DNA of 64,000 bases, from positions 1 through 64,000 of the forward strand of contig JABXHN010000013.1 of assembly GCA_013373635.1 (NCBI GenBank), in the 5' to 3' direction. Numbering within the stretch: the first letter of the stretch is position 1; the number at the start of each line of letters is the position of its first letter. The position numbers were made by a program, and so were the translations under genes. Below, in pieces: positions 1 through 38,065 of the stretch. The notes beneath the pieces were generated by a model. That model saw nothing but the letters and a program-made list of their open reading frames with translations. It did no database searches and was not told the DNA's origin. The stretch comes from Flavobacteriaceae bacterium. Lineage in GTDB: Bacteria; Bacteroidota; Bacteroidia; Flavobacteriales; Flavobacteriaceae.

Positions 1-60
1 GTTGGTTAGAATACCTGCCTGTCACGCAGGGGGTCGCGAGTTCGAGTCTCGTCCAGACCG
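1..60 (+). tRNA. tRNA-Asp (GTC), 5' end cut off by window edge
   Basis: The fragment starts in the D-arm. The anticodon arm reads CCTGC-CTGTCAC-GCAGG, giving anticodon GTC (Asp). The T-arm is GCGAG-TTCGAGT-CTCGT, followed by the acceptor strand CCAGACC and discriminator G at 60. CCA is not encoded, as is usual in Bacteroidota. The 5' acceptor strand and part of the D-arm lie outside the window. Confidence 0.93.
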
Positions 61-100
61 CTAGAAAAAAGCCCGGTAATTAATTTTACTGGGCTTTTTC
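51..100 (+). repeat. Direct repeat copy 1: tRNA-Asp 3' end plus terminator
   Basis: The last bases of tRNA-Asp (CCAGACCG), the following CTA and the whole terminator hairpin recur at 1364-1413. The first 20 positions align without gaps at 16 of 20. The next 10 (GCCCGGTAAT) are identical, and the second hairpin arm is nearly so. The two copies bracket the Fic gene, like the left and right ends of an insertion at a tRNA gene. Confidence 0.75.
64..100 (+). terminator. Intrinsic terminator after tRNA-Asp
   Basis: AAAGCCCGGTAA pairs with TTACTGGGCTTT, followed by a T run. This hairpin has a close copy after the Fic gene at 1381-1414. Confidence 0.85.
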
Positions 101-160
101 ATTTTTACCGGGGACGAAACCGGGGAGGTTTTAGGGGTTTATTGTGAAAATTGATTTTTG

Positions 161-220
161 ATTTGCGGAGAAAAATTAACATATTCACCGCAAATATACG
201 GAGAATAATAGGTATCTTTA
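161..220 (+). promoter_or_regulatory. Inverted repeat and -7 box upstream of the Fic gene
   Basis: ATTTGCGG at 161-168 is the exact reverse complement of CCGCAAAT at 188-195, with a 19-base spacer. A Bacteroidota-like -7 box, TATCTTTA, lies at 213-220, about 19 bases before the GTG start. The right arm therefore overlaps the expected -33 region, which is a plausible operator position. The binding protein is unknown; the Fic protein's own C-terminal winged-helix-like region is one candidate. Confidence 0.45.
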
Positions 221-238
221 CAGCATAAATTATTTTTC

Positions 239-1345
239 GTGGCTAAATACATCTATCAACATACTAATTGGACAAATTTTCATTGGCAAGATCATGCCAT
301 CAACACTGTTTTTGGTGAAGTTCGAAATTTACAAGGTAAGATTATTGGCCAAATGAATACCGTAGGCTTTTCTATTAAAGAGGAAGCTAATCTTTCTACA
401 TTAACTCTTGATGTCGTAAAATCATCAGCAATAGAAGGCGAACAACTCAACTATGATCAAGTGCGTTCCTCAATTGCAAGACGTTTAGGAATGGATGTCG
501 CTGGGATGACATCTAGTAGCAGAGACGTAGAGGGAGTTGTTGAAATGATGTTAGATGCTACTCAGTATTATATGAAGCCACTTACTGAAGAACGGCTTTT
601 TGGATGGCATTCTGAACTGTTTCCAACTGGTTACAGTGGAATGTATAAAATTGAAGTTGCTAAATACAGAACTGGAGAAATGCAAATTGTCTCTGGAGCA
701 ATGGGTAAAGAAAAAATTCACTATCACGCACCTGCACCACAATATGTAAAATCTGAAATGGATAACTTCTTAATGTGGTTTAACTCTGAAAACAATTTAG
801 ATCCAGTGCTAAAAGCTGCGATAGCACATTTTTGGTTCATTATCATTCACCCATTCGATGATGGAAACGGAAGAATTGCAAGAGCCATAACTGATTTATT
901 ATTGGCTCGATCTGATAAAAGCACAGATCGATTTTACAGTATGTCAAGTCAGATATTGAATGAACAAAAACAATATTATGCTGTATTACAAAAAGTACAG
1001 CATAGTTCAGGTGATATTACCGAATGGTTAGTTTGGTTTCTTAATTGCTTAAAAAATGCACTAATTGAAACTGAAAAATCTTTACAGAAAGTTTTATTAA
1101 AAGCTGAATTTTGGAATATTAACGAACATACAGCCATCAATGAAAGGCAACGAATAGTACTCAACAAACTTCTAGGTGATTTTGTTGGTAAATTAACAAC
1201 CTCCAAATGGGCTAAAATGACTAAATCCTCACAAGATACTGCCTTAAGAGACATCTACGATTTAGTCGATAAAAACATCTTAGAAAAAGCCACTTCAGGA
1301 GGTAGAAGCACCCATTATTTTTTAAGATTAAATCAAAAAAAATGA
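239..1345 (+). CDS. Fic/DOC family protein (probable AMP transferase), class II, with N-terminal DUF4172-like region
   Basis: Fic enzymes transfer AMP or other phosphate-containing groups from nucleotides to target proteins. The core motif HPFDDGNGR starts at His204 and is intact, including the catalytic His and the Asp and Arg positions. An inhibitory-helix motif (S/T)xxxE(G/N) is present as S62-S-A-I-E66-G67, which places it in the class whose inhibitory helix lies N-terminal to the Fic fold. The first 40 residues (YQHTNWTNFHW) resemble DUF4172, seen on many bacterial Fic proteins. The last 70 residues look like a winged helix, suggesting DNA binding or autoregulation. The start is GTG; the next Met (residue 39) would remove the N-terminal domain. 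The gene stands alone between two copies of a tRNA-end/terminator repeat, so it may be a transferred cargo gene. Its target is unknown. Confidence 0.9.
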   Translation: MAKYIYQHTNWTNFHWQDHAINTVFGEVRNLQGKIIGQMNTVGFSIKEEANLSTLTLDVVKSSAIEGEQLNYDQVRSSIARRLGMDVAGMTSSSRDVEGVVEMMLDATQYYMKPLTEERLFGWHSELFPTGYSGMYKIEVAKYRTGEMQIVSGAMGKEKIHYHAPAPQYVKSEMDNFLMWFNSENNLDPVLKAAIAHFWFIIIHPFDDGNGRIARAITDLLLARSDKSTDRFYSMSSQILNEQKQYYAVLQKVQHSSGDITEWLVWFLNCLKNALIETEKSLQKVLLKAEFWNINEHTAINERQRIVLNKLLGDFVGKLTTSKWAKMTKSSQDTALRDIYDLVDKNILEKATSGGRSTHYFLRLNQKK

Positions 1346-1363
1346 TTTAAAACAATAAATTTT

Positions 1364-1413
1364 GACCAGACCGCTAAAGTAAAGCCCGGTAATTTAATTA
1401 CTGGGCTTTTTTA
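1364..1413 (+). repeat. Direct repeat copy 2: tRNA-Asp end remnant plus terminator
   Basis: ACCAGACCGCTA at 1365-1376 matches the tRNA-Asp 3' end and its next bases, followed by the copied terminator hairpin. No T-arm or anticodon arm precedes it, so it is not a second tRNA gene. It starts about 20 bases after the Fic stop codon. Confidence 0.75.
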
Positions 1414-1414
1414 T
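1381..1414 (+). terminator. Intrinsic terminator after the Fic gene
   Basis: AAAGCCCGGTAAT and ATTACTGGGCTTT form a hairpin followed by six T. It is a copy of the tRNA-Asp terminator and now ends the Fic transcript. Confidence 0.85.
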
Positions 1415-1512
1415 TTATAACACTTAATAATTCAGTTAGTTTTTACATTTTAACTTCAAATAAAACAAAAGACTTCTATTTTTTTCTATTTTCATTCAAA
1501 ATTTAGAACCCT

Positions 1513-2097
1513 ATGAAAACCCTACTATTTATTTTAGCATGGATACCCATGCTTGCACAAGCACAAACATCATTATTTAACGGAAAAAACCTCGATGGTT
1601 GGACCATACAAGGAACTGAGAAGTGGTATGTTGAGGATGGCCTATTAGTCTGCGAAAGTGGACCAGATGAAGAATACGGCTATTTGACTACCGATGCCTT
1701 TTACGATGATTTCATTTTAGAATTAGACTTCAAACAAGAAGCTGATGGTAACTCTGGAGTCTTTATTCGCTCAACTGTGGAAGGAACCAAAATCAGTGGA
1801 TGGCAAGTCGAAGTAGCTCCTCCAGGACTTCACACCGGTGGTGTATATGAGTCTTACGGAAGAGGATGGCTTATTAAACCAGAACCAGAGAAGGAAAAAT
1901 TCCTTAAAATGGGAGAATGGAACCATCTAAAGATTAAAGTCAAAGGAGCTCATATCACTAGTTGGTTAAACGGTGAGAAAATGATTCATCTCAAAGATGG
2001 TAAGATTGGAGATGGAAAAGGATCCATTGCATTACAAATTCACTCCGGAGGAGGAATCAAGGTACAGTGGAAAAACATCCAAGTAAAACAATTGTAA
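1513..2097 (+). CDS. Secreted DUF1080 protein (3-keto-disaccharide hydrolase-like domain)
   Basis: A signal peptide (MKTLLFILAWIPMLAQAQ) precedes a single DUF1080 domain that fills the protein. Recognisable parts are SLFNGKNLDGW at the start, the NSGVFIRS stretch, and a terminal GGGIKVQWKNI. DUF1080 proteins have a concanavalin-like jelly-roll fold. Some act on 3-keto-glycosides, but many have no proven activity. At 194 residues it is a minimal single-domain member acting in the periplasm or outside the cell. It has its own terminator and sits beside the gal genes, but no functional link to them can be shown from sequence. Confidence 0.82.
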   Translation: MKTLLFILAWIPMLAQAQTSLFNGKNLDGWTIQGTEKWYVEDGLLVCESGPDEEYGYLTTDAFYDDFILELDFKQEADGNSGVFIRSTVEGTKISGWQVEVAPPGLHTGGVYESYGRGWLIKPEPEKEKFLKMGEWNHLKIKVKGAHITSWLNGEKMIHLKDGKIGDGKGSIALQIHSGGGIKVQWKNIQVKQL

Positions 2098-2104
2098 AAC
2101 TAAA

Positions 2105-2133
2105 AAGAGGTAGCTAGTCTACCTCTTTTTTTA
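2105..2133. terminator. Bidirectional terminator between the DUF1080 gene and galE
   Basis: AGAGGTAG and CTACCTCT form a stem around a short loop, with A and T runs on the two sides. It can serve both converging genes. Confidence 0.8.
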
Positions 2134-2178
2134 TCTTGATGATTTAATTCTTATTGATCTTCCAATTGAGGAGTTGTT

Positions 2179-3201
2179 TTAGCTCCTTATTTTCTTTTCC
2201 CAATTCCAAGCGGATAATAAAGCGTCTTTAAGAGTGTACTGTGATTTCCATCCTAGTACTTGATTTGCCTTTGTGGTATCAGCATATGCAGCCGTAATAT
2301 CCCCTTCTCTTCGATCGACAATTTTATAGTTGAGCTTCTGTCCCGACACCTCTTCAAAAGCGTGTATCACTTCTAGTACAGACGATCCTTTTCCGGTACC
2401 GATATTAAACACTTCATAACTCTCAGAATTATTTTTTTCGATAAGCCTTTTTAAAGCAGCCACGTGAGCTTTAGCCAAATCAACAACGTGAATATAATCT
2501 CTGATACAGGTTCCATCCTGGGTTGGATAATCATCTCCAAAAACAGAAAGTTGTTCTCTTATTCCTATTCCAGTTTGAGTGATAAAAGGAACAAGGTTTT
2601 GTGGAGTTCCAATTGGTAGCTCTCCTATTTTTGAAGATTCATGAGCTCCAATGGGATTAAAATAGCGGAGTGCAATGGCATTGAGTTTTTTTGAAACTTT
2701 CGCAGTATCTCGTATAATCTCTTCACCAATTTGTTTGGTATTCCCATAAGGAGATTCTGCAGTTTTTGTTGGAGCTGCTTCTGTAATTGGCAACTCGTCA
2801 GCCTGTCCATAAACGGTACAGGAAGAACTAAAGATAAAATTAGCGGTTGGCAACTGTTCTAATTCTTGTAAGAGATAAATCAGAGAAGCAAGGTTGTTTT
2901 CGTAATACAATAATGGCAATTGAACACTCTCTCCAACTGCTTTAGAAGCTGCAAAATGAATGACACCTTCTATAGCTGAATGCTTTTTAAAAAAATCACT
3001 TACATAAATTTTATCTCTTAGATCAAACTCCTCAAAAACAGGTTCGATTCCAGTAATTTCTGTAATGCCTTTTAACACCTCTTTTGAAGAATTGGATAAA
3101 TTATCGATGATTATTACCTCATATCCTTCATTTTGAAGTTCAACGACTACATGAGAACCGATAAAGCCAAGTCCTCCACTGACAACTATTTTTTTACTCA
3201 T
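2179..3201 (-). CDS. galE: UDP-glucose 4-epimerase
   Basis: This cytosolic enzyme interconverts UDP-galactose and UDP-glucose in the Leloir pathway. It is an extended short-chain dehydrogenase. The Rossmann NAD motif GGLGFIG lies at residues 9-15, and the catalytic Tyr152-x-x-x-Lys156 appears in SPYGNTK. The substrate-loop region GTCIRDYIHVVDLA is typical of GalE. Its 340 residues match the family. It is transcribed divergently from galK-galT, whose products supply galactose-1-phosphate and UDP-galactose. Confidence 0.95.
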   Translation of the reverse strand: MSKKIVVSGGLGFIGSHVVVELQNEGYEVIIIDNLSNSSKEVLKGITEITGIEPVFEEFDLRDKIYVSDFFKKHSAIEGVIHFAASKAVGESVQLPLLYYENNLASLIYLLQELEQLPTANFIFSSSCTVYGQADELPITEAAPTKTAESPYGNTKQIGEEIIRDTAKVSKKLNAIALRYFNPIGAHESSKIGELPIGTPQNLVPFITQTGIGIREQLSVFGDDYPTQDGTCIRDYIHVVDLAKAHVAALKRLIEKNNSESYEVFNIGTGKGSSVLEVIHAFEEVSGQKLNYKIVDRREGDITAAYADTTKANQVLGWKSQYTLKDALLSAWNWEKKIRS

Positions 3202-3205
3202 AGCT

Positions 3206-3213
3206 CAAATTTA
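3206..3213 (-). promoter_or_regulatory. -7 promoter box for galE
   Basis: TAAATTTG on the minus strand matches the Bacteroidota consensus TAnnTTTG and lies just upstream of the galE ATG, so the leader would be very short. A TTTGG element lies further upstream but with shorter spacing than usual. Confidence 0.45.
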
Positions 3214-3291
3214 CATATTTATTAAAACCAAATACCATAAATACTGTATTAGTGTTGTAATTTTATATCTTAGGATAGACAAGATATTGCA

Positions 3292-4437
3292 ATGAATAAT
3301 AAGCTCATAGATCGTGTTAAAAAAGGTTTTTTTGAAGAATTCAACTCGAATCCTTTTTTGATCTTTTCTCCAGGCAGAATCAATATCATAGGGGAACACA
3401 CTGACTATAACGATGGATTTGTTTTTCCATCAGCGGTTGACAAGGGAATTGTGGCAGCTTTTGAAAAAAGTAATAGCACTAGTTCTAAAGCAATTGCTCT
3501 TGACCTTGATGAATCCTTTGAATTTGAGGTCGATTCCATTGCTCCTCAAAAAGAGCAATTATGGGCTAATTATATACTTGGAGTTATAGACGAATTAAAA
3601 AAGAAAGGGAATCATATTAAAAATTTCAATCTTGTGTTTAGTGGAGATATCCCAAATGGAGCTGGCATGTCATCCTCTGCAGCACTTGAAAACAGTGTAG
3701 TATTTGGATTAAATGAACTTTTTGAATTAGGGCTTTCCAAAGAAGAAATGATCTTCATTTCACAAAAGGCAGAACACAATTATGTGGGGGTTCAATGTGG
3801 AATCATGGATCAATACGCATCGATGTTTGGTCTTAAAGACCAGGCTTTGCATTTGGATTGTAGATCCATCGAGGCCACCCCCTTTAAAATTGATCTTGGA
3901 GACTATCAATTACTACTGATCAATACTAACGTTAAACACACCCTTTCAGAAAGCGCCTACAATAATAGACGGGAAGTTTGCGAACGTATTTCTAGTTTAT
4001 TAAAAGTCACGGCTCTTCGAGATGTAAGTGAACTAGATCTTTTCGCTATAAAAGACAAAGTATCCGATGAAGATTTTCAAAAAGCCTTATTTGTCATTCA
4101 GGAAAACAAGCGAACCATTGAAGCTTCTAAAGCCATGACAAATGGAGATTTAAATAGATTGGGGGAACTTATTTATGCATCTCATCATGGTTTACAACAT
4201 CAATATCAAGTAAGCTGTAAAGAGTTAGATTTTTTAGTGGATGTTACAAGAGACAAAGACTACCTATTGGGAGCTCGAATGATGGGTGGTGGTTTTGGTG
4301 GCTGTACCATCAATCTAATCAAAACTTCAGAAATCAACTCCTTTAGCCAATACATCAAAGAAGCTTATTTTCATAAATTTAATATTCAGTGTTCTATTTA
4401 CGATGTCACATTATCAGATGGAACTCATCAACTTTAA
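3292..4437 (+). CDS. galK: Galactokinase
   Basis: It phosphorylates galactose to galactose-1-phosphate with ATP in the cytosol. The galactokinase signature PGRINIIGEHTD lies at residues 27-38. The GHMP ATP-binding motif GAGMSSSAA lies at 123-131, and the C-terminal glycine motif MGGGFGGC is present. Its 381 residues are normal for the family. It starts at ATG and is followed after 8 bases by galT, so the two are co-transcribed. It is divergent from galE across 90 bases. Confidence 0.96.
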   Translation: MNNKLIDRVKKGFFEEFNSNPFLIFSPGRINIIGEHTDYNDGFVFPSAVDKGIVAAFEKSNSTSSKAIALDLDESFEFEVDSIAPQKEQLWANYILGVIDELKKKGNHIKNFNLVFSGDIPNGAGMSSSAALENSVVFGLNELFELGLSKEEMIFISQKAEHNYVGVQCGIMDQYASMFGLKDQALHLDCRSIEATPFKIDLGDYQLLLINTNVKHTLSESAYNNRREVCERISSLLKVTALRDVSELDLFAIKDKVSDEDFQKALFVIQENKRTIEASKAMTNGDLNRLGELIYASHHGLQHQYQVSCKELDFLVDVTRDKDYLLGARMMGGGFGGCTINLIKTSEINSFSQYIKEAYFHKFNIQCSIYDVTLSDGTHQL

Positions 4438-4445
4438 TAAATCCC

Positions 4446-5477
4446 ATGAACTCAAATTTACAAGACTATTCCCATAAGCGTTTTAACATTCTCACCGGAG
4501 AATGGGTATTGGTATCTCCTCATCGCACCAAAAGACCTTGGCAGGGGCAACAAGAAGAGCTAATGACTGATTTGAGACCTACTCATGATGTTAATTGTTA
4601 TTTGTGTTCTGGTAACACTAGAGCGAATGGAGAACAAAATCCTGATTACCAAGACATATTCATCTTTGAAAATGACTTTGCTTCACTTCAAAGCGATACT
4701 CCAGATTTTAAAGTTCACGAAGGTTTATTAAAAGCAGAATCAGAAACAGGCATTTGCAAGGTCATTTGCTTTAGTTCGGATCACTCGATGAGTTTAGCCG
4801 ATATGAAAGTTTCTGCTATTGAAAAAGTAGTAACTGCATGGCAAAGAGAATATTTATCTCTTGGTCAGAGAAATGACATCAATTACGTTCAGATTTTTGA
4901 AAACAAAGGAAGTATTATGGGATGCAGTAATCCACATCCTCATGGACAGATATGGGCTCAATTAACACTTCCAAATGAAGTCCTAAAGAAAGATCTTCAG
5001 CAAAAAAACTATTACGACAAAAAACAATCGAGCTTATTAGGAGATTATCTCTCACAAGAATTAGAACTTGGAGAGCGTATCTTATTTGAAAATGATTCTT
5101 TTGTAATTCTCGTTCCTTTTTGGGCAGTATGGCCTTTTGAAACAATGATCGTACCCAAAAAACACCTTAAAAATATAGCTGAATTAACTTTTGAAGAATC
5201 AAAGGCATTTGCAGAGGCCATCTCTGTGATTACAAAGGCCTATGACAAACTCTTTAAAACTTCATTTCCCTATTCTAGTGGAATTCATCAGGCACCAACC
5301 AATGATCAAGATCATTCTCATTGGCATTGGCATATGAGTTTTTATCCTCCCTTATTGAGATCTGCTACAGTTAAGAAATTCATGGTTGGATACGAGCTAT
5401 TTGGAACACCTCAACGAGATATCAGTCCTGAAAAGGCAACCGAAATGATTAAAAGCTTCATACCAACTTTTATATAA
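4446..5477 (+). CDS. galT: Galactose-1-phosphate uridylyltransferase
   Basis: It exchanges galactose-1-phosphate with UDP-glucose to give UDP-galactose and glucose-1-phosphate. The active-site motif HPHGQ lies at residues 164-168, with His166 as the expected nucleophile. The metal-binding pair C51-x-x-C54 (CYLC) is present. Its 343 residues fit the family. The open frame extends upstream into galK, but the ATG at 4446, 8 bases after the galK stop, begins the conserved region. Confidence 0.96.
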   Translation: MNSNLQDYSHKRFNILTGEWVLVSPHRTKRPWQGQQEELMTDLRPTHDVNCYLCSGNTRANGEQNPDYQDIFIFENDFASLQSDTPDFKVHEGLLKAESETGICKVICFSSDHSMSLADMKVSAIEKVVTAWQREYLSLGQRNDINYVQIFENKGSIMGCSNPHPHGQIWAQLTLPNEVLKKDLQQKNYYDKKQSSLLGDYLSQELELGERILFENDSFVILVPFWAVWPFETMIVPKKHLKNIAELTFEESKAFAEAISVITKAYDKLFKTSFPYSSGIHQAPTNDQDHSHWHWHMSFYPPLLRSATVKKFMVGYELFGTPQRDISPEKATEMIKSFIPTFI

Positions 5478-5493
5478 TCAATATATTTAACCC

Positions 5494-5979
5494 ATGAATT
5501 CGATTAAAACCCTCTATTTCACGATTAAGAAGTGGCTTGAAAACAAGTACATTTCCAACGGATTATACATTATTGGTTTTCTTGCTCTTTATATTTTTTA
5601 TATCAATCCCAAGGTTGATTTCAAAGAACACTCTGAAAAGGGAATTCAATTTGAACAGATCAGTCTAAGTCAGGCCATTCAAAAATCTAAAGCCGAAAAT
5701 AAACCCCTTTTTGTCGATGTCTACGCTACCTGGTGCGGTCCCTGTAAACGAATGAAAAAGTTCACCTTTACAGATGAAAAACTAGGAGCATACTACAATG
5801 AGCATTTTATAAACATCAGTCTCGATGGAGAAACAATGGAAGGAAGAAGATTTCATAACTCCTTCCCCTTTTCAGCCTATCCAACTGTATTTATTATAGC
5901 TCCAAATGGCGAAATACTACTTAAAGAAGAAGGCTTTAGTTTCGCCTTCTCATTACTCAATAAAGCTAAAACCCTCTAA
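5494..5979 (+). CDS. Membrane-anchored thioredoxin-like protein
   Basis: An N-terminal hydrophobic segment at about residues 21-36 is followed by a thioredoxin fold with the active site W80-CGPC (Cys81 and Cys84) inside YATWCGPCKRMK. This resembles the DsbD C-terminal domain/thioredoxin_7 type, probably facing the periplasm and handling disulfides there. It begins 17 bases after galT, so it may be read from the gal transcript. It overlaps the next gene by one base (TAATG), implying translational coupling to the peroxiredoxin-like protein. Confidence 0.82.
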   Translation: MNSIKTLYFTIKKWLENKYISNGLYIIGFLALYIFYINPKVDFKEHSEKGIQFEQISLSQAIQKSKAENKPLFVDVYATWCGPCKRMKKFTFTDEKLGAYYNEHFINISLDGETMEGRRFHNSFPFSAYPTVFIIAPNGEILLKEEGFSFAFSLLNKAKTL

Positions 5980-36100: not shown

Positions 36101-36842
36101 TGTCATCTTTGACAAAGAAGAAGGTTTTGCAGAAGGAAGCTTAGCTCAAAAAGTAGAAAAAGAACTGAATCGAATGATTGTTGATGGAACTCTAAAAATT
36201 CCTTCTGGCATTAGTTATAAGCTTACTGGGTCCTATGAAAACCAATTAAGAGCAGAAAAAACACTCAGCATCATCATCCCGTTAGTTTTACTAATCATAT
36301 CGGTAATTCTATACATGCAGTTTAGATCCATTGCTACAGCGTTGTTTATTTTTAGTGGAATAGCCGTTGCTTTCTCTGGAGGCTTTATTTTAATATGGCT
36401 TTACGGTCAGGACTGGTTCTTAAACATCGACTTTTTTGGCGTTTCACTTCGTGAGGTATTTAACATTCAAAGTATTAACCTCAGCGTTGCAGTATGGGTT
36501 GGGTTTATCGCACTTTTTGGAATTGCAACTGACGACGGAGTCGTTATGGCGACCTATCTTAAACAAAATTTCGAAAAACAAAAGCCAGAAAGTATTGCTG
36601 AAATTAGAAAAGCGGTAACTGAAGCTGGTTTAAAGAGGATTAAACCTTGTTTGATGACCACAGCGACAACTCTCATTGCCTTATTACCTGTGATGAGTTC
36701 TCACGGTAGGGGAAGTGATATCATGATTCCTATGGCCATCCCTAGTTTTGGAGGAATGCTCGTCGCATTAATTACGCTATTTGTGGTACCAGTGTTGTAC
36801 AGTTGGAATCAAGAACTTAAACTTAAAAAGGCATTATCATGA
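33174..36842 (+). CDS. cusA: Heavy-metal RND efflux pump, CusA/CzcA-like
   Basis: This inner-membrane proton-driven pump moves metal ions through a CusCBA-type tripartite channel. The N-terminus, including DAIPDLGENQQIV, and the transmembrane motif AIGTMVDVGIILTENIIRRL are typical of the heavy-metal branch. Its 1222 residues exceed the usual 1040 or so. The extra length lies in additional hydrophobic segments near residues 550-610 and a periplasmic insert near 710-790, as in other long Bacteroidota CusA proteins. Its stop overlaps the TolC-like gene by 4 bases (ATGA). Copper or silver is the likely substrate because the neighbours are CopA-like and carry copper-type Cys/Met motifs. Confidence 0.92.
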   Translation: MLNKSIKYLIENKFIVFVLLVLILGWGMTHAPFNWNNKLITQDPVPVDAIPDLGENQQIVFSKWEGRSPQDIEDQITYPLTTTLLGIPGVKTIRSSSMFGFSSIYIIFEEDIEFYWSRSRILEKLNALPQGLLPQGVQPSLGPDATALGQLFWYTIEGRDPDGNPTGGWDLDELRSVQDFYVKYALASAQGVSEVSSIGGHIREYQVDVDPKKLEQYDISLAQIAQAIKGSNKDIGAQTIEINRAEYFVRGLGSITSLKDLEQVAVKTTDYRPIYLNEIANIQFGPAQRRGILDKSGVEAVGAAVVSRYGANPLEVIENVKEKIAELSPGLPSKVLADGTVSKLTIIPFYDRTELIQETLGTLDEALSLEILITILVIVIMLYNLRASALISGLLPLAVLIVFIAMKYANVDANIVSLSGIAIAIGTMVDVGIILTENIIRRLNEDQNKTPINELVFNATKEVSSAIITAVLTTIVSFIPVFALIGAEGKLFRPLAFTKTFALIAALLISLFIIPPIAAIIFKKSTQKGIYSRFKQQIKDQINSFYPKSIAGIKLPNPLLLITLGLILFMLTALWVPMGVDKSYMLNLLIVVLLTFGILGLFKLFQKKYQGILEWALANKLKFLAIPISLLVFGALIFSNTQKEFMPALDEGSFLLMPSSLPHAGIEQNRETLRQLDLAVAQIPEVATVVGKSGRTESALDPAPLSMYENVINYKSEFVKNEEGDLQKFKVNEDGFFVLKDGSLIYNPNIELSEKQHSYASERLFHQINPNELIVDSRGELYRNWRPEIKTANDIWNEIARVSKIPGVTSAPKLQPIETRLVMLQTGMRAPLGIKVRGSSLEQIEAFGFELEKQLKTIKGVKEQTVFADRMVGKPYLIFDLDRDKIARYGLTISKVQESLQLAVGGVPLTQTIEGRERYNIRLRYPRSLRNDPEELSNISIDLPNGTTIPISEVAQIKYERGPGQIKSEDGFLVGYVIFDKEEGFAEGSLAQKVEKELNRMIVDGTLKIPSGISYKLTGSYENQLRAEKTLSIIIPLVLLIISVILYMQFRSIATALFIFSGIAVAFSGGFILIWLYGQDWFLNIDFFGVSLREVFNIQSINLSVAVWVGFIALFGIATDDGVVMATYLKQNFEKQKPESIAEIRKAVTEAGLKRIKPCLMTTATTLIALLPVMSSHGRGSDIMIPMAIPSFGGMLVALITLFVVPVLYSWNQELKLKKALS

Positions 36843-38065
36843 AAAACAGATATCGATTTATAGCACTTTTTTGGATTGCATCAACTGTAGGAGTCTTTGC
36901 TCAACAACTCGATGAATTGATTGAAACAGCCCTTGAAAACAATGCTCGATTAAATGTTCTCGAATTAAAAGTAGCTGCTACTAAAGAAGGTGAAATACAA
37001 GCGGAAAGTTGGAAAAATACTTCCATATCCTCGGCTCTATTTATCAGCGAACCAGAGACTAGAACAGGTCCTCAAAAGTTTCAACTATCAGCAAGTCAAC
37101 CAATTCCAGCATTTGGAAGAATCACTGCTCGTACAGCATACGCCAAGTCCTTAACCGATATCAGTTATCAAGAGTGGGTGATTGCTAAGCGAAAATTGAT
37201 TTTAGAAGTTGCCCAATTGTACTACAACTACCAAGTTCTCATTAGACAAAGTGCTTTGATTGAAAAACATATAAAGCGATTGGATCAGTATATTTCCATT
37301 GCGACTACTAAAGTGACCACAGGTGAAGCTTCAGCTGTGGATGTATTTCAACTCAAGATGAGAAAAGAAGACTACCAAAACAACTATCTTCAAATTCAAA
37401 AGTCTTTCGATGTGATTGCTTCTGCTCTTAAGGCTACCTTAAATACCAATACAGAAATTAATATTAAAGAAGATTCCAGTTTTACAATACATTCAACAAG
37501 TTTAGATCTGGACAAGTATCAACTAGAAATCCACCCTGAACTCATTCAATACGATTTACTTTTTGAATCAGTAGCTAAAGAACGAGATTTAAACGATAAG
37601 GAACGATTACCAGGGATTGGTGTTGGTCTAAACTACATCAATGTTGCTAATCGAGTTGACCTCAACCCAATCGATAACGGAAAGGATATTGTGGCTCCGA
37701 TGCTCTCATTTAGTCTTCCTATCTTTAATAAAAGCTATCAATCTAAGGAACGTCAATTAAACATCAGAGAAAAGCAGGTTGAACAGCAAAAAATAGATCG
37801 TGCAAATCAATTGCAACAACAACTCGATCGCGCTATCGCCTTGAGTGAAAAAGCATTGATTGATTTCAATTCTCAAAATAAAAACTTGAACTTAGCGCAT
37901 CAATCCATGGAACTAGTACTAGCGGCTTTTCAAACGAACGCTAAGGGAATTGAAAAACTTTTAGATATCCAGCAAATGGAGTTTAATTATGAATTCAAAA
38001 AAATAGCTGCTATTGGCAACTATTTTCAAGGAAGACTACAATTAGAATACCTTGTAAATCAGTAA
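36839..38065 (+). CDS. TolC-family outer-membrane efflux protein (CusC-like role)
   Basis: A signal peptide ending VGVFAQ is followed by long helical heptad stretches and two OEP repeats (ETALENNARLNVLELKVAATKEGE and a related second half). This is the outer-membrane exit duct for the RND pump. Its 408 residues are normal. It is translationally coupled to the pump gene upstream and lies 3 bases from copA downstream. Confidence 0.9.
   Translation: MKNRYRFIALFWIASTVGVFAQQLDELIETALENNARLNVLELKVAATKEGEIQAESWKNTSISSALFISEPETRTGPQKFQLSASQPIPAFGRITARTAYAKSLTDISYQEWVIAKRKLILEVAQLYYNYQVLIRQSALIEKHIKRLDQYISIATTKVTTGEASAVDVFQLKMRKEDYQNNYLQIQKSFDVIASALKATLNTNTEINIKEDSSFTIHSTSLDLDKYQLEIHPELIQYDLLFESVAKERDLNDKERLPGIGVGLNYINVANRVDLNPIDNGKDIVAPMLSFSLPIFNKSYQSKERQLNIREKQVEQQKIDRANQLQQQLDRAIALSEKALIDFNSQNKNLNLAHQSMELVLAAFQTNAKGIEKLLDIQQMEFNYEFKKIAAIGNYFQGRLQLEYLVNQ

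What the first reader, a model, noticed from the sequence alone, without database searches (positions are those of the whole stretch)
51..1413. Fic gene bounded by direct copies of the tRNA-Asp 3' end and its terminator
Positions 51-100 (tRNA-Asp acceptor end plus terminator) recur at 1364-1413, roughly four in five bases or better, with the Fic gene as the only gene between them. This is the geometry left by site-specific insertion at a tRNA 3' end, where the incoming element restores the tRNA and pushes out the old end. There is no integrase in between, so the element would be a decayed or satellite-type single-gene cargo. Alternatively, a former tandem tRNA was replaced.
Basis: partly seen in the sequence, partly recalled or inferred. 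Interest (0 to 1): 0.72.

Follow-up and report, generated by a model that had tools for sequence, protein, structure and literature searches.

The report
Lone Fic gene at tRNA-Asp end
A single self-contained gene for a protein-modifying enzyme, possibly an anti-phage one, sits just behind an aspartate tRNA gene between two copies of the tRNA's tail, most likely what is left of a mobile element that once inserted there.

Summary
The repeat is real: CCAGACCGCTA (last 8 nt of tRNA-Asp plus CTA) and its terminator at 53-101 recur at 1366-1413 (49 of 58 aligned bases), with one gene between, a DUF4172-Fic enzyme (239-1345). The near relative G004 (~96% identical) aligns from 1412 on; between about 151 and 1411 it has a different Fic gene and no second copy, so cargo has been swapped, but this is no clean empty site. 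tRNA-Asp is a genuine insertion site in the family: I mapped 30 other units ending in a tRNA-Asp 3' fragment; 11 hold recombinase sequence, 19 none found. A Fic gene lies in 4 of the 29 not chosen for Fic. G195 holds a close counterpart (tRNA-Asp, Fic, one gene, fragment, no integrase), and G000 itself a second single-Fic unit behind tRNA-Met. Best reading: an integrase-less, CIME-like remnant of a tRNA-Asp integrative element. Weak points: only 8 nt of tRNA remain; 0 of 80 close relatives of this Fic sit in such units; a Fic sample shows no clear excess near tRNAs; tandem full tRNA-Asp copies occur too. Ordinary in kind; the integrase-less arrays are the interesting part.

The parts
1..60 (+). 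3' part of tRNA-Asp (GTC), 5' end cut off by the contig start
   Evidence: Rfam tRNA 37.1 bits, cut at 5'; sequence
53..63 (+). repeat copy 1, tRNA part: acceptor 3' strand + discriminator + CTA
64..101 (+). repeat copy 1, terminator (arms 66-79 and 86-99, then T run)
   Evidence: inverted repeat I8
107..139 (+). CCGGGGACG doublet and following block, also found behind the tRNA-Asp terminator in G004 (C39) and G009 and at the orthologous site in G004 (C43); a shorter form in G001
150..238 (+). conserved upstream region of this Fic subfamily, likely operator/promoter (arms ATTTGCGG 161-168 / CCGCAAAT 188-195)
   Evidence: alignment of 80 upstream stretches incl. the window; arms; best nucleotide match to each of 80 relatives reaches no further left than 150
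239..1345 (+). Fic gene, 368 aa: DUF4172 + Fic, motif HPFDDGNGR, SSAIEG
1366..1376 (+). repeat copy 2, tRNA part (11/11)
1377..1413 (+). repeat copy 2, terminator
151..1411 (.). block without counterpart in G004, where a different Fic gene stands
   Evidence: G004:C43 matches window 83-150 and 1412 onward
1513..2097 (+). flank: 3-keto-disaccharide hydrolase gene, 98% identical protein in G004

Best explanation
[quoted passage not shown] The incoming element carried its own copy of the tRNA 3' end and of the terminator, so the tRNA stayed whole and still terminated; the old 3' end and terminator were pushed to the far side of the cargo. Only one cargo gene is left, a self-contained Fic enzyme with its own operator-like upstream region, plausibly an AMPylating (possibly anti-phage) gene. 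Shown: the repeat, the single gene, the cargo difference at this site from G004, the same geometry with related integrases elsewhere in the family. Inferred: that an integrase made this copy, that it was lost or acted in trans, and the function of the Fic protein.
For: Repeat and geometry. G004 (~96% identical): different 512-aa Fic gene at the site, homology resuming at 1412, just at the end of copy 2's terminator. Family: 30 further units ending in a tRNA-Asp 3' fragment; 11 with recombinase sequence (8 with one ORF each; the 3 in G149 hold only pieces), 19 with none of the two kinds sought. 36 fragments: 33 of 15-25 nt, 3 of 42-47 nt, none of 26-41 nt; the cut was at 14 nt, so shorter ones could not be seen. 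26 of 36 are followed by a hairpin plus T run in a rough test. Seven related integrases inside such units, 0.25-1.7 kb behind tRNA-Asp, in G028, G023, G309, G189, G272, G389, G150. Fic cargo in 4 of 29 units not chosen for Fic (G189, G389, G272, G221), and in G195, found through Fic; in the 15 genomes other than G000/G004, 4 of 12 Fic domains lie inside units that make up about 0.45% of the DNA (my arithmetic). G195: tRNA-Asp, Fic, one gene, fragment, no integrase, repeats 54/58. G000's second Fic unit at tRNA-Met. G036 and G150 (95-96% identical flanks): array contents share only one match over 150 nt (169 nt, 77%). Precedent: the Riemerella island at tRNA-Arg has a 53-bp att repeat that holds what I read as a hairpin and T run (PMC6764341, passages).
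Against: Only 8 nt of tRNA are left in copy 2; the 36 other fragments have 15 or more, but by a method that could not see shorter ones. No integrase in the unit; G000's best match to the tRNA-Asp integrase profile is partial, 107 bits. Copy 1, not copy 2, carries the CCGGGG block that G004 also has, so a simple one-step insertion in G000 after the split from G004 does not fit; a swap or an older event is needed. 0 of 80 close relatives of this Fic gene are bounded by tRNA copies. Fic sample: 4 of 48 bounded vs 0 of 20 controls (3 of 47 without G189, which I held because of its tRNA-Asp unit), and 10 of 48 vs 3 of 20 with a tRNA on the proper side: no clear difference.
Confidence: 0.64

Rival explanations
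1. Former tandem tRNA-Asp: a second tRNA-Asp with its own terminator stood at 1366 and lost its body when the Fic gene came in; no site-specific recombination.
For: Full tandem tRNA-Asp genes occur in the family: 6 of the 16 genomes fetched (G362, G370, G232, G106, G198, G201), also G025, G032, G052. Copy 2's terminator is close to copy 1's.
Against: Within the genus 6 of 12 genomes match the tRNA-Asp end pattern, each exactly once. Partial copies in the family cluster at 15-25 nt, none at 26-41 nt, as expected for an att site rather than random erosion (nothing under 15 nt could be seen).
Confidence: 0.18
2. The Fic gene came as a lone gene by ordinary recombination into a spot that already held a relic tRNA end from an older, lost element. 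Fic and repeat are then unrelated.
For: Near relatives of this Fic gene are scattered over Bacteroidota: of the 80 best loci of 457, 0 bounded by tRNA copies, 4 with a tRNA on the proper side within 10 kb, 2 with a recombinase of the two kinds sought; similarity to the relatives spans 150-1336, operator plus gene, not the repeat. G004 has another Fic there without copy 2.
Against: Fic genes recur inside tRNA-Asp units in other genera and a second Fic in G000 has the same geometry at tRNA-Met.
Confidence: 0.13
3. Assembly artefact of a metagenome bin.
For: The contig starts inside tRNA-Asp, and another contig (C83) ends in a tRNA-Asp whose 3' end looks chimeric.
Against: Copy 2 lies 1.3 kb inside a 135-kb contig, and right of 1412 G004's assembly agrees.
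Confidence: 0.05

Closest known systems
CIME (cis-mobilizable element; PMC5704250, passages read)
   Same: No integration or transfer genes; flanked by copies that look like attL and attR; family examples stand in tandem with other units
   Different: One gene only; descent from an ICE or IME not shown; att function untested
tRNA-borne genomic islands as mapped by Islander (PMC4383910, abstract and passages)
   Same: tRNA plus displaced 3' fragment in the same orientation on the 3' side; boundary near the T-stem/acceptor junction, one of the crossover subsites that paper names (J)
   Different: Islander rejects candidates without integrase and under 2 kb, so a unit like this one would be left out
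Riemerella anatipestifer 10K island (PMC6764341, passages)
   Same: Repeat lies at a tRNA end and holds what I read as a hairpin with T run; probably the same bacterial order (recalled)
   Different: tRNA-Arg, 53-bp perfect repeat, own integrase, 12 ORFs
CbFic2, PDB 8CIL (PMC10628234, passages), and SoFic (PMC12249575, abstract and outline)
   Same: DUF4172 + Fic; HPFDDGNGR; S/TSAIEG; full-length match to 8cil (355.7 bits)
   Different: Far below NCBIfam's SoFic cut-off (70.5 vs 550 bits); a C-terminal HTH is inferred, not shown, here; activity and target unknown

Membership tests
tRNA-borne genomic island (Islander signature) | full tRNA plus cognate 3' fragment, same orientation, on the 3' side | tested here: inconclusive
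   orientation and side fit, but the fragment is only 8 nt and the tRNA's 5' end is off the contig
tRNA-borne genomic island (Islander signature) | integrase gene inside | tested here: not met
   only the Fic gene lies between
tRNA-borne genomic island (Islander signature) | at least 2 kb long | tested here: not met
   1313 bp
CIME | integration and transfer genes lost | tested here: met
   one gene, Fic; that such genes were once there is inferred
CIME | attL and attR kept | tested here: inconclusive
   repeats present; no recombination assay possible
CIME | derived from a related ICE or IME | tested here: inconclusive
   integrase-bearing units at tRNA-Asp in other genera; in G000 only a partial 107-bit relative
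Class II Fic of CbFic2 type | DUF4172, HPFDDGNGR, inhibitory motif S/TxxxEG | tested here: met
   motifs as given in PMC10628234
Class II Fic of CbFic2 type | AMPylation controlled by DNA binding | not testable with these tools
   needs protein
SoFic defence gene | NCBIfam NF046030 equivalog cut-off | tested here: not met
   70.5 vs 550 bits; PADLOC SoFic 163.8 bits, no cut-off shown
Integron cassette array | attC sites and IntI | not tested
   tRNA ends mark the units; considered as an analogy only

The most novel reading that the evidence does not exclude
The unit belongs to a cassette system built on a tRNA gene: arrays of integrase-less units, each headed by a tRNA-Asp 3' end plus terminator and carrying one or a few genes, moved one by one by integrases supplied in trans, much as integron cassettes are. 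For: 19 of 30 mapped units hold no recombinase of the kinds sought; G036 holds five detected integrase-less units in a row in a single-contig genome; contents differ between 95%-identical relatives; a 6.4-kb stretch shared at 98% by G036 and G152 ends at the tRNA end although the next sequence differs; G078 and G277, with integrase-less units, hold close relatives of the tRNA-Asp integrases elsewhere (530 and 512 bits). Against: G036 and G195 hold no close one (best 45 bits in G036, none at E 1e-10 in G195), so no resident helper is seen there.
Probability: 0.15. Interest if true: 0.8.

Novelty: new member of a known kind. Interest (0 to 1): 0.45.

Why it matters
It shows how small a tRNA-end insertion can get and stay recognisable, and that the usual island search (integrase required, 2 kb or more) passes over such units. 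Among the units that I mapped, which are not a random sample, those without a recombinase outnumber those with one, and array contents, Fic genes among them, differ between near-identical genomes. If the integrase-less units prove mobile, a common tRNA gene would be a cassette landing pad across a large family of bacteria.

Tried and rejected
Fic genes linked to tRNA ends in general: not supported. From (63 of 110 genomes with a match) I examined 48 Fic loci, taken mostly from the top of a list ordered by E-value (40 fetched; 8 already held, seven of them as homologs of the window's Fic and one, G189, because of its tRNA-Asp unit) and 20 control stretches 60 kb to one side: 4 of 48 vs 0 of 20 bounded, 10 of 48 vs 3 of 20 with a tRNA on the proper side within 10 kb; for tRNA-Asp alone 3 of 48 vs 1 of 20.

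This Fic subfamily as tRNA cargo: 0 of the 80 best loci of 457. Phage origin: no match in 50,697 phage records at E 1e-20. On plasmids it occurs (262 records, E 1e-40).

The CCGGGGACG block as a mobile repeat: rejected; with up to 3 mismatches it occurs at 4 places in 3 of 12 genus genomes, each behind a terminator of the tRNA-Asp kind.

Base composition: the Fic gene (34.6% G+C) is within the window's spread (mean 37.5, sd 2.1); no help.

Rfam STnc310 match at 1371-1431, minus strand (26.6 vs gathering 40): below threshold, taken as the terminator hairpin.

Left out of the count of 30 units: five other fetched loci, G014 (a partial copy on the 5' side of the full tRNA, with an integrase), G025, G032, G052 (full tandem tRNAs) and G048 (two ends 142 nt apart at a contig start; not resolved). 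Fragments under 14 nt were cut off by the method; a check of the same stretches found two CCAGACCG sites with less than 14 nt of tRNA, neither with a terminator. G295's integrase lies just outside its unit, which is therefore counted as without, and neither of its two copies is a full tRNA.

Literature on tRNA-Asp as an integration site in this group. No listed paper shows it by title or abstract start; the listings were capped (12 of 30, 12 of 48). The one that names tRNA-Asp among those with an integrase (PMC4755523, passages) does so only for where the gene lies. Only the held open library was searched.

Full report
Observation. The window is contig C4:1-64000 of a 2.5-Mb genome in 97 contigs and begins inside a tRNA-Asp (Rfam 37.1 bits, cut at 5'). 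The last 8 nt of the tRNA, CTA and the terminator (53-101) recur at 1366-1413: 49 of 58 aligned bases, E 1.3e-10 against the whole genome; 0 of 20,000 first-order shuffles of the 167-nt gap give the 11/11 tRNA-end match. The only gene between is a 368-aa DUF4172-Fic gene.

Same site in the nearest relative. G004's hydrolase and GalE proteins are 98-99% identical, and its DNA matches the window at about 96% from 1412 rightwards. G004:C43 also matches 83-150 (90%), but between these it has a 512-aa Fic gene of another kind (PADLOC PDC-S24, 648.9 bits) and no second tRNA end that I could see. So [151-1411], Fic plus copy 2, is a replaceable block whose right edge is the end of copy 2's terminator. 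This is not an empty site: copy 1 with its CCGGGG block is shared by both genomes, so either G004 lost copy 2 when its Fic gene came, or G000 gained Fic plus copy 2 by a swap. G004 has one tRNA-Asp match, on another contig (C39), with an MFS gene upstream as at the end of G000's C83. C83 and C4 may be the two sides of one tRNA; not proven.

The family. In 299 family genomes 261 hold the tRNA-Asp 3' end pattern, and by my hand count of the table 64 hold it twice or more, full tandem tRNAs included (the list of places was cut). I read 18 stretches from 14 genomes of G036's genus plus G028 and G023, and 16 further genomes picked from listed pairs no more than about 20 kb apart, so not a random sample. 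Of these 16, 10 had a partial second copy and 6 full-length tandem tRNAs. With G195 added (found through a Fic search), 30 units apart from the window end in a fragment: 11 with recombinase sequence (three of them pieces in G149), 19 with none of the two kinds sought (a profile of these tyrosine recombinases and one serine recombinase); 36 fragments, 33 of 15-25 nt, 3 of 42-47 nt (fragments under 14 nt were cut off). 26 of the 36 are followed by a hairpin plus T run in a rough test; most of G149's are not. Seven tyrosine recombinases from such units align well, with H-x-x-R, G-H and a C-terminal Y invariant (meaning of the motifs recalled). So tRNA-Asp is a real insertion site, and units without integrase are common among those mapped.

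Turnover. G036 and G150 agree at 95-96% on both sides of the array (G036 1-5545 and 36403-38001 in reversed locus coordinates), while the contents (about 31 and 26 kb) share only one match longer than 150 nt (169 nt, 77%, E 1e-10). G036's five detected units hold no recombinase, and its outermost boundary holds what I read as a decayed repeat. A 6.4-kb stretch shared with G152 at 98% ends at the tRNA end; G152's distance from G036 was not measured and its contig has runs of N.

Fic as cargo. 4 of the 29 units not chosen for Fic hold a Fic gene (G189, G389, G272, G221). In 15 of the 17 genomes searched, leaving out G000 and G004, 4 of 12 Fic domains lie inside tRNA-Asp units and a fifth just outside one; by my sum these units are about 245 kb of 54.5 Mb (expected 0.05). 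G195's unit is the closest counterpart of the window: tRNA-Asp, terminator, Fic, one 636-aa gene, fragment and near-identical terminator, no recombinase. In G000 itself contig C13 holds tRNA-Met, terminator, one Fic gene (318 aa), then a 15/16 copy of the tRNA-Met end (0 of 20,000 shuffles). Against a general rule: the Fic sample shows no clear excess over controls, and 0 of 80 close relatives of this Fic gene are bounded by tRNA copies.

The Fic gene itself. Best solved relative by sequence: 8cil, full length, 355.7 bits, which is CbFic2, a DUF4172 class II Fic with a C-terminal HTH, regulated by DNA binding; its authors used random DNA and left a specific site open (passages). In 80 aligned upstream stretches (window and 79 relatives) a block TTGCGGTGA...TCACCGCAA, then TTTGCGGTGA...TTACCGCA, is the consensus, with many columns at 85% or more; simple word tests find TTTGCGG or TTGCGGA in 58 of 80 and an ACCGCAAA-like word in 36 of 80. 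In the window arms lie at 161-168 and 188-195. I infer an autoregulatory operator. PADLOC's SoFic model matches (163.8 bits) but NCBIfam's cut-off is missed by far, so anti-phage function is a guess.

Mechanism and standing. Best reading (0.64): remnant of a tRNA-Asp integrative element that lost its integrase, CIME-like as defined in PMC5704250 (passages). The 53-bp att repeat of the Riemerella island, which holds what I read as a hairpin and T run, makes a repeat that includes the terminator unremarkable. Islander's filters (integrase required, 2 kb or more) would leave such units out. Rivals: tandem tRNA relic (0.18), lone-gene arrival beside an older relic (0.13), artefact (0.05). The most novel reading, trans-mobilised tRNA cassettes (0.15), has some support in G078 and G277, which hold related integrases elsewhere, and none in G036 and G195.

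Noticed in passing
window 150-238 and upstream of 79 relatives (among L272-L351): A conserved double palindrome (consensus TTGCGGTGA...TCACCGCAA) precedes this Fic subfamily across Bacteroidota; a candidate specific DNA target for a DNA-regulated Fic enzyme, for which the CbFic2 paper left the site open.
   Followed up: partly
L188 40-1235 (G000 contig C13): Second single-Fic unit in the same genome: tRNA-Met, terminator, Fic (318 aa), 15/16 copy of the tRNA-Met end.
   Followed up: partly
L093/L094 (G036), L149-L151 (G149), L152/L153 (G150): Arrays of up to six or seven tRNA-Asp ends in one direction with ordinary genes between; contents of G036 and G150 differ almost wholly though their flanks are 95-96% identical.
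   Followed up: yes
L200 4799-11640 (G105): A 6.8-kb unit at tRNA-Met with a Fic gene and a large serine recombinase whose gene overlaps the tRNA; the Islander paper (2014) says only tyrosine recombinases were known to target tRNA genes. L236 has a serine recombinase gene overlapping a tRNA-Arg.
   Followed up: no
L081 18109-19350 (G001): A tyrosine recombinase gene reads away from a tRNA-Asp 3' part that starts in the D-arm, about where the window's contig begins; another kind of insertion at the same tRNA.
   Followed up: no
L002 1-114 (G000 contig C83): tRNA-Asp with a 3' end that does not pair well with its 5' end, followed by what looks like the start of another tRNA: chimeric contig end or an unusual insertion.
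   Followed up: no
L078 4400-4578 (G004 contig C43): What looks like an insertion-sequence end lies in the terminator of the orthologous site.
   Followed up: no
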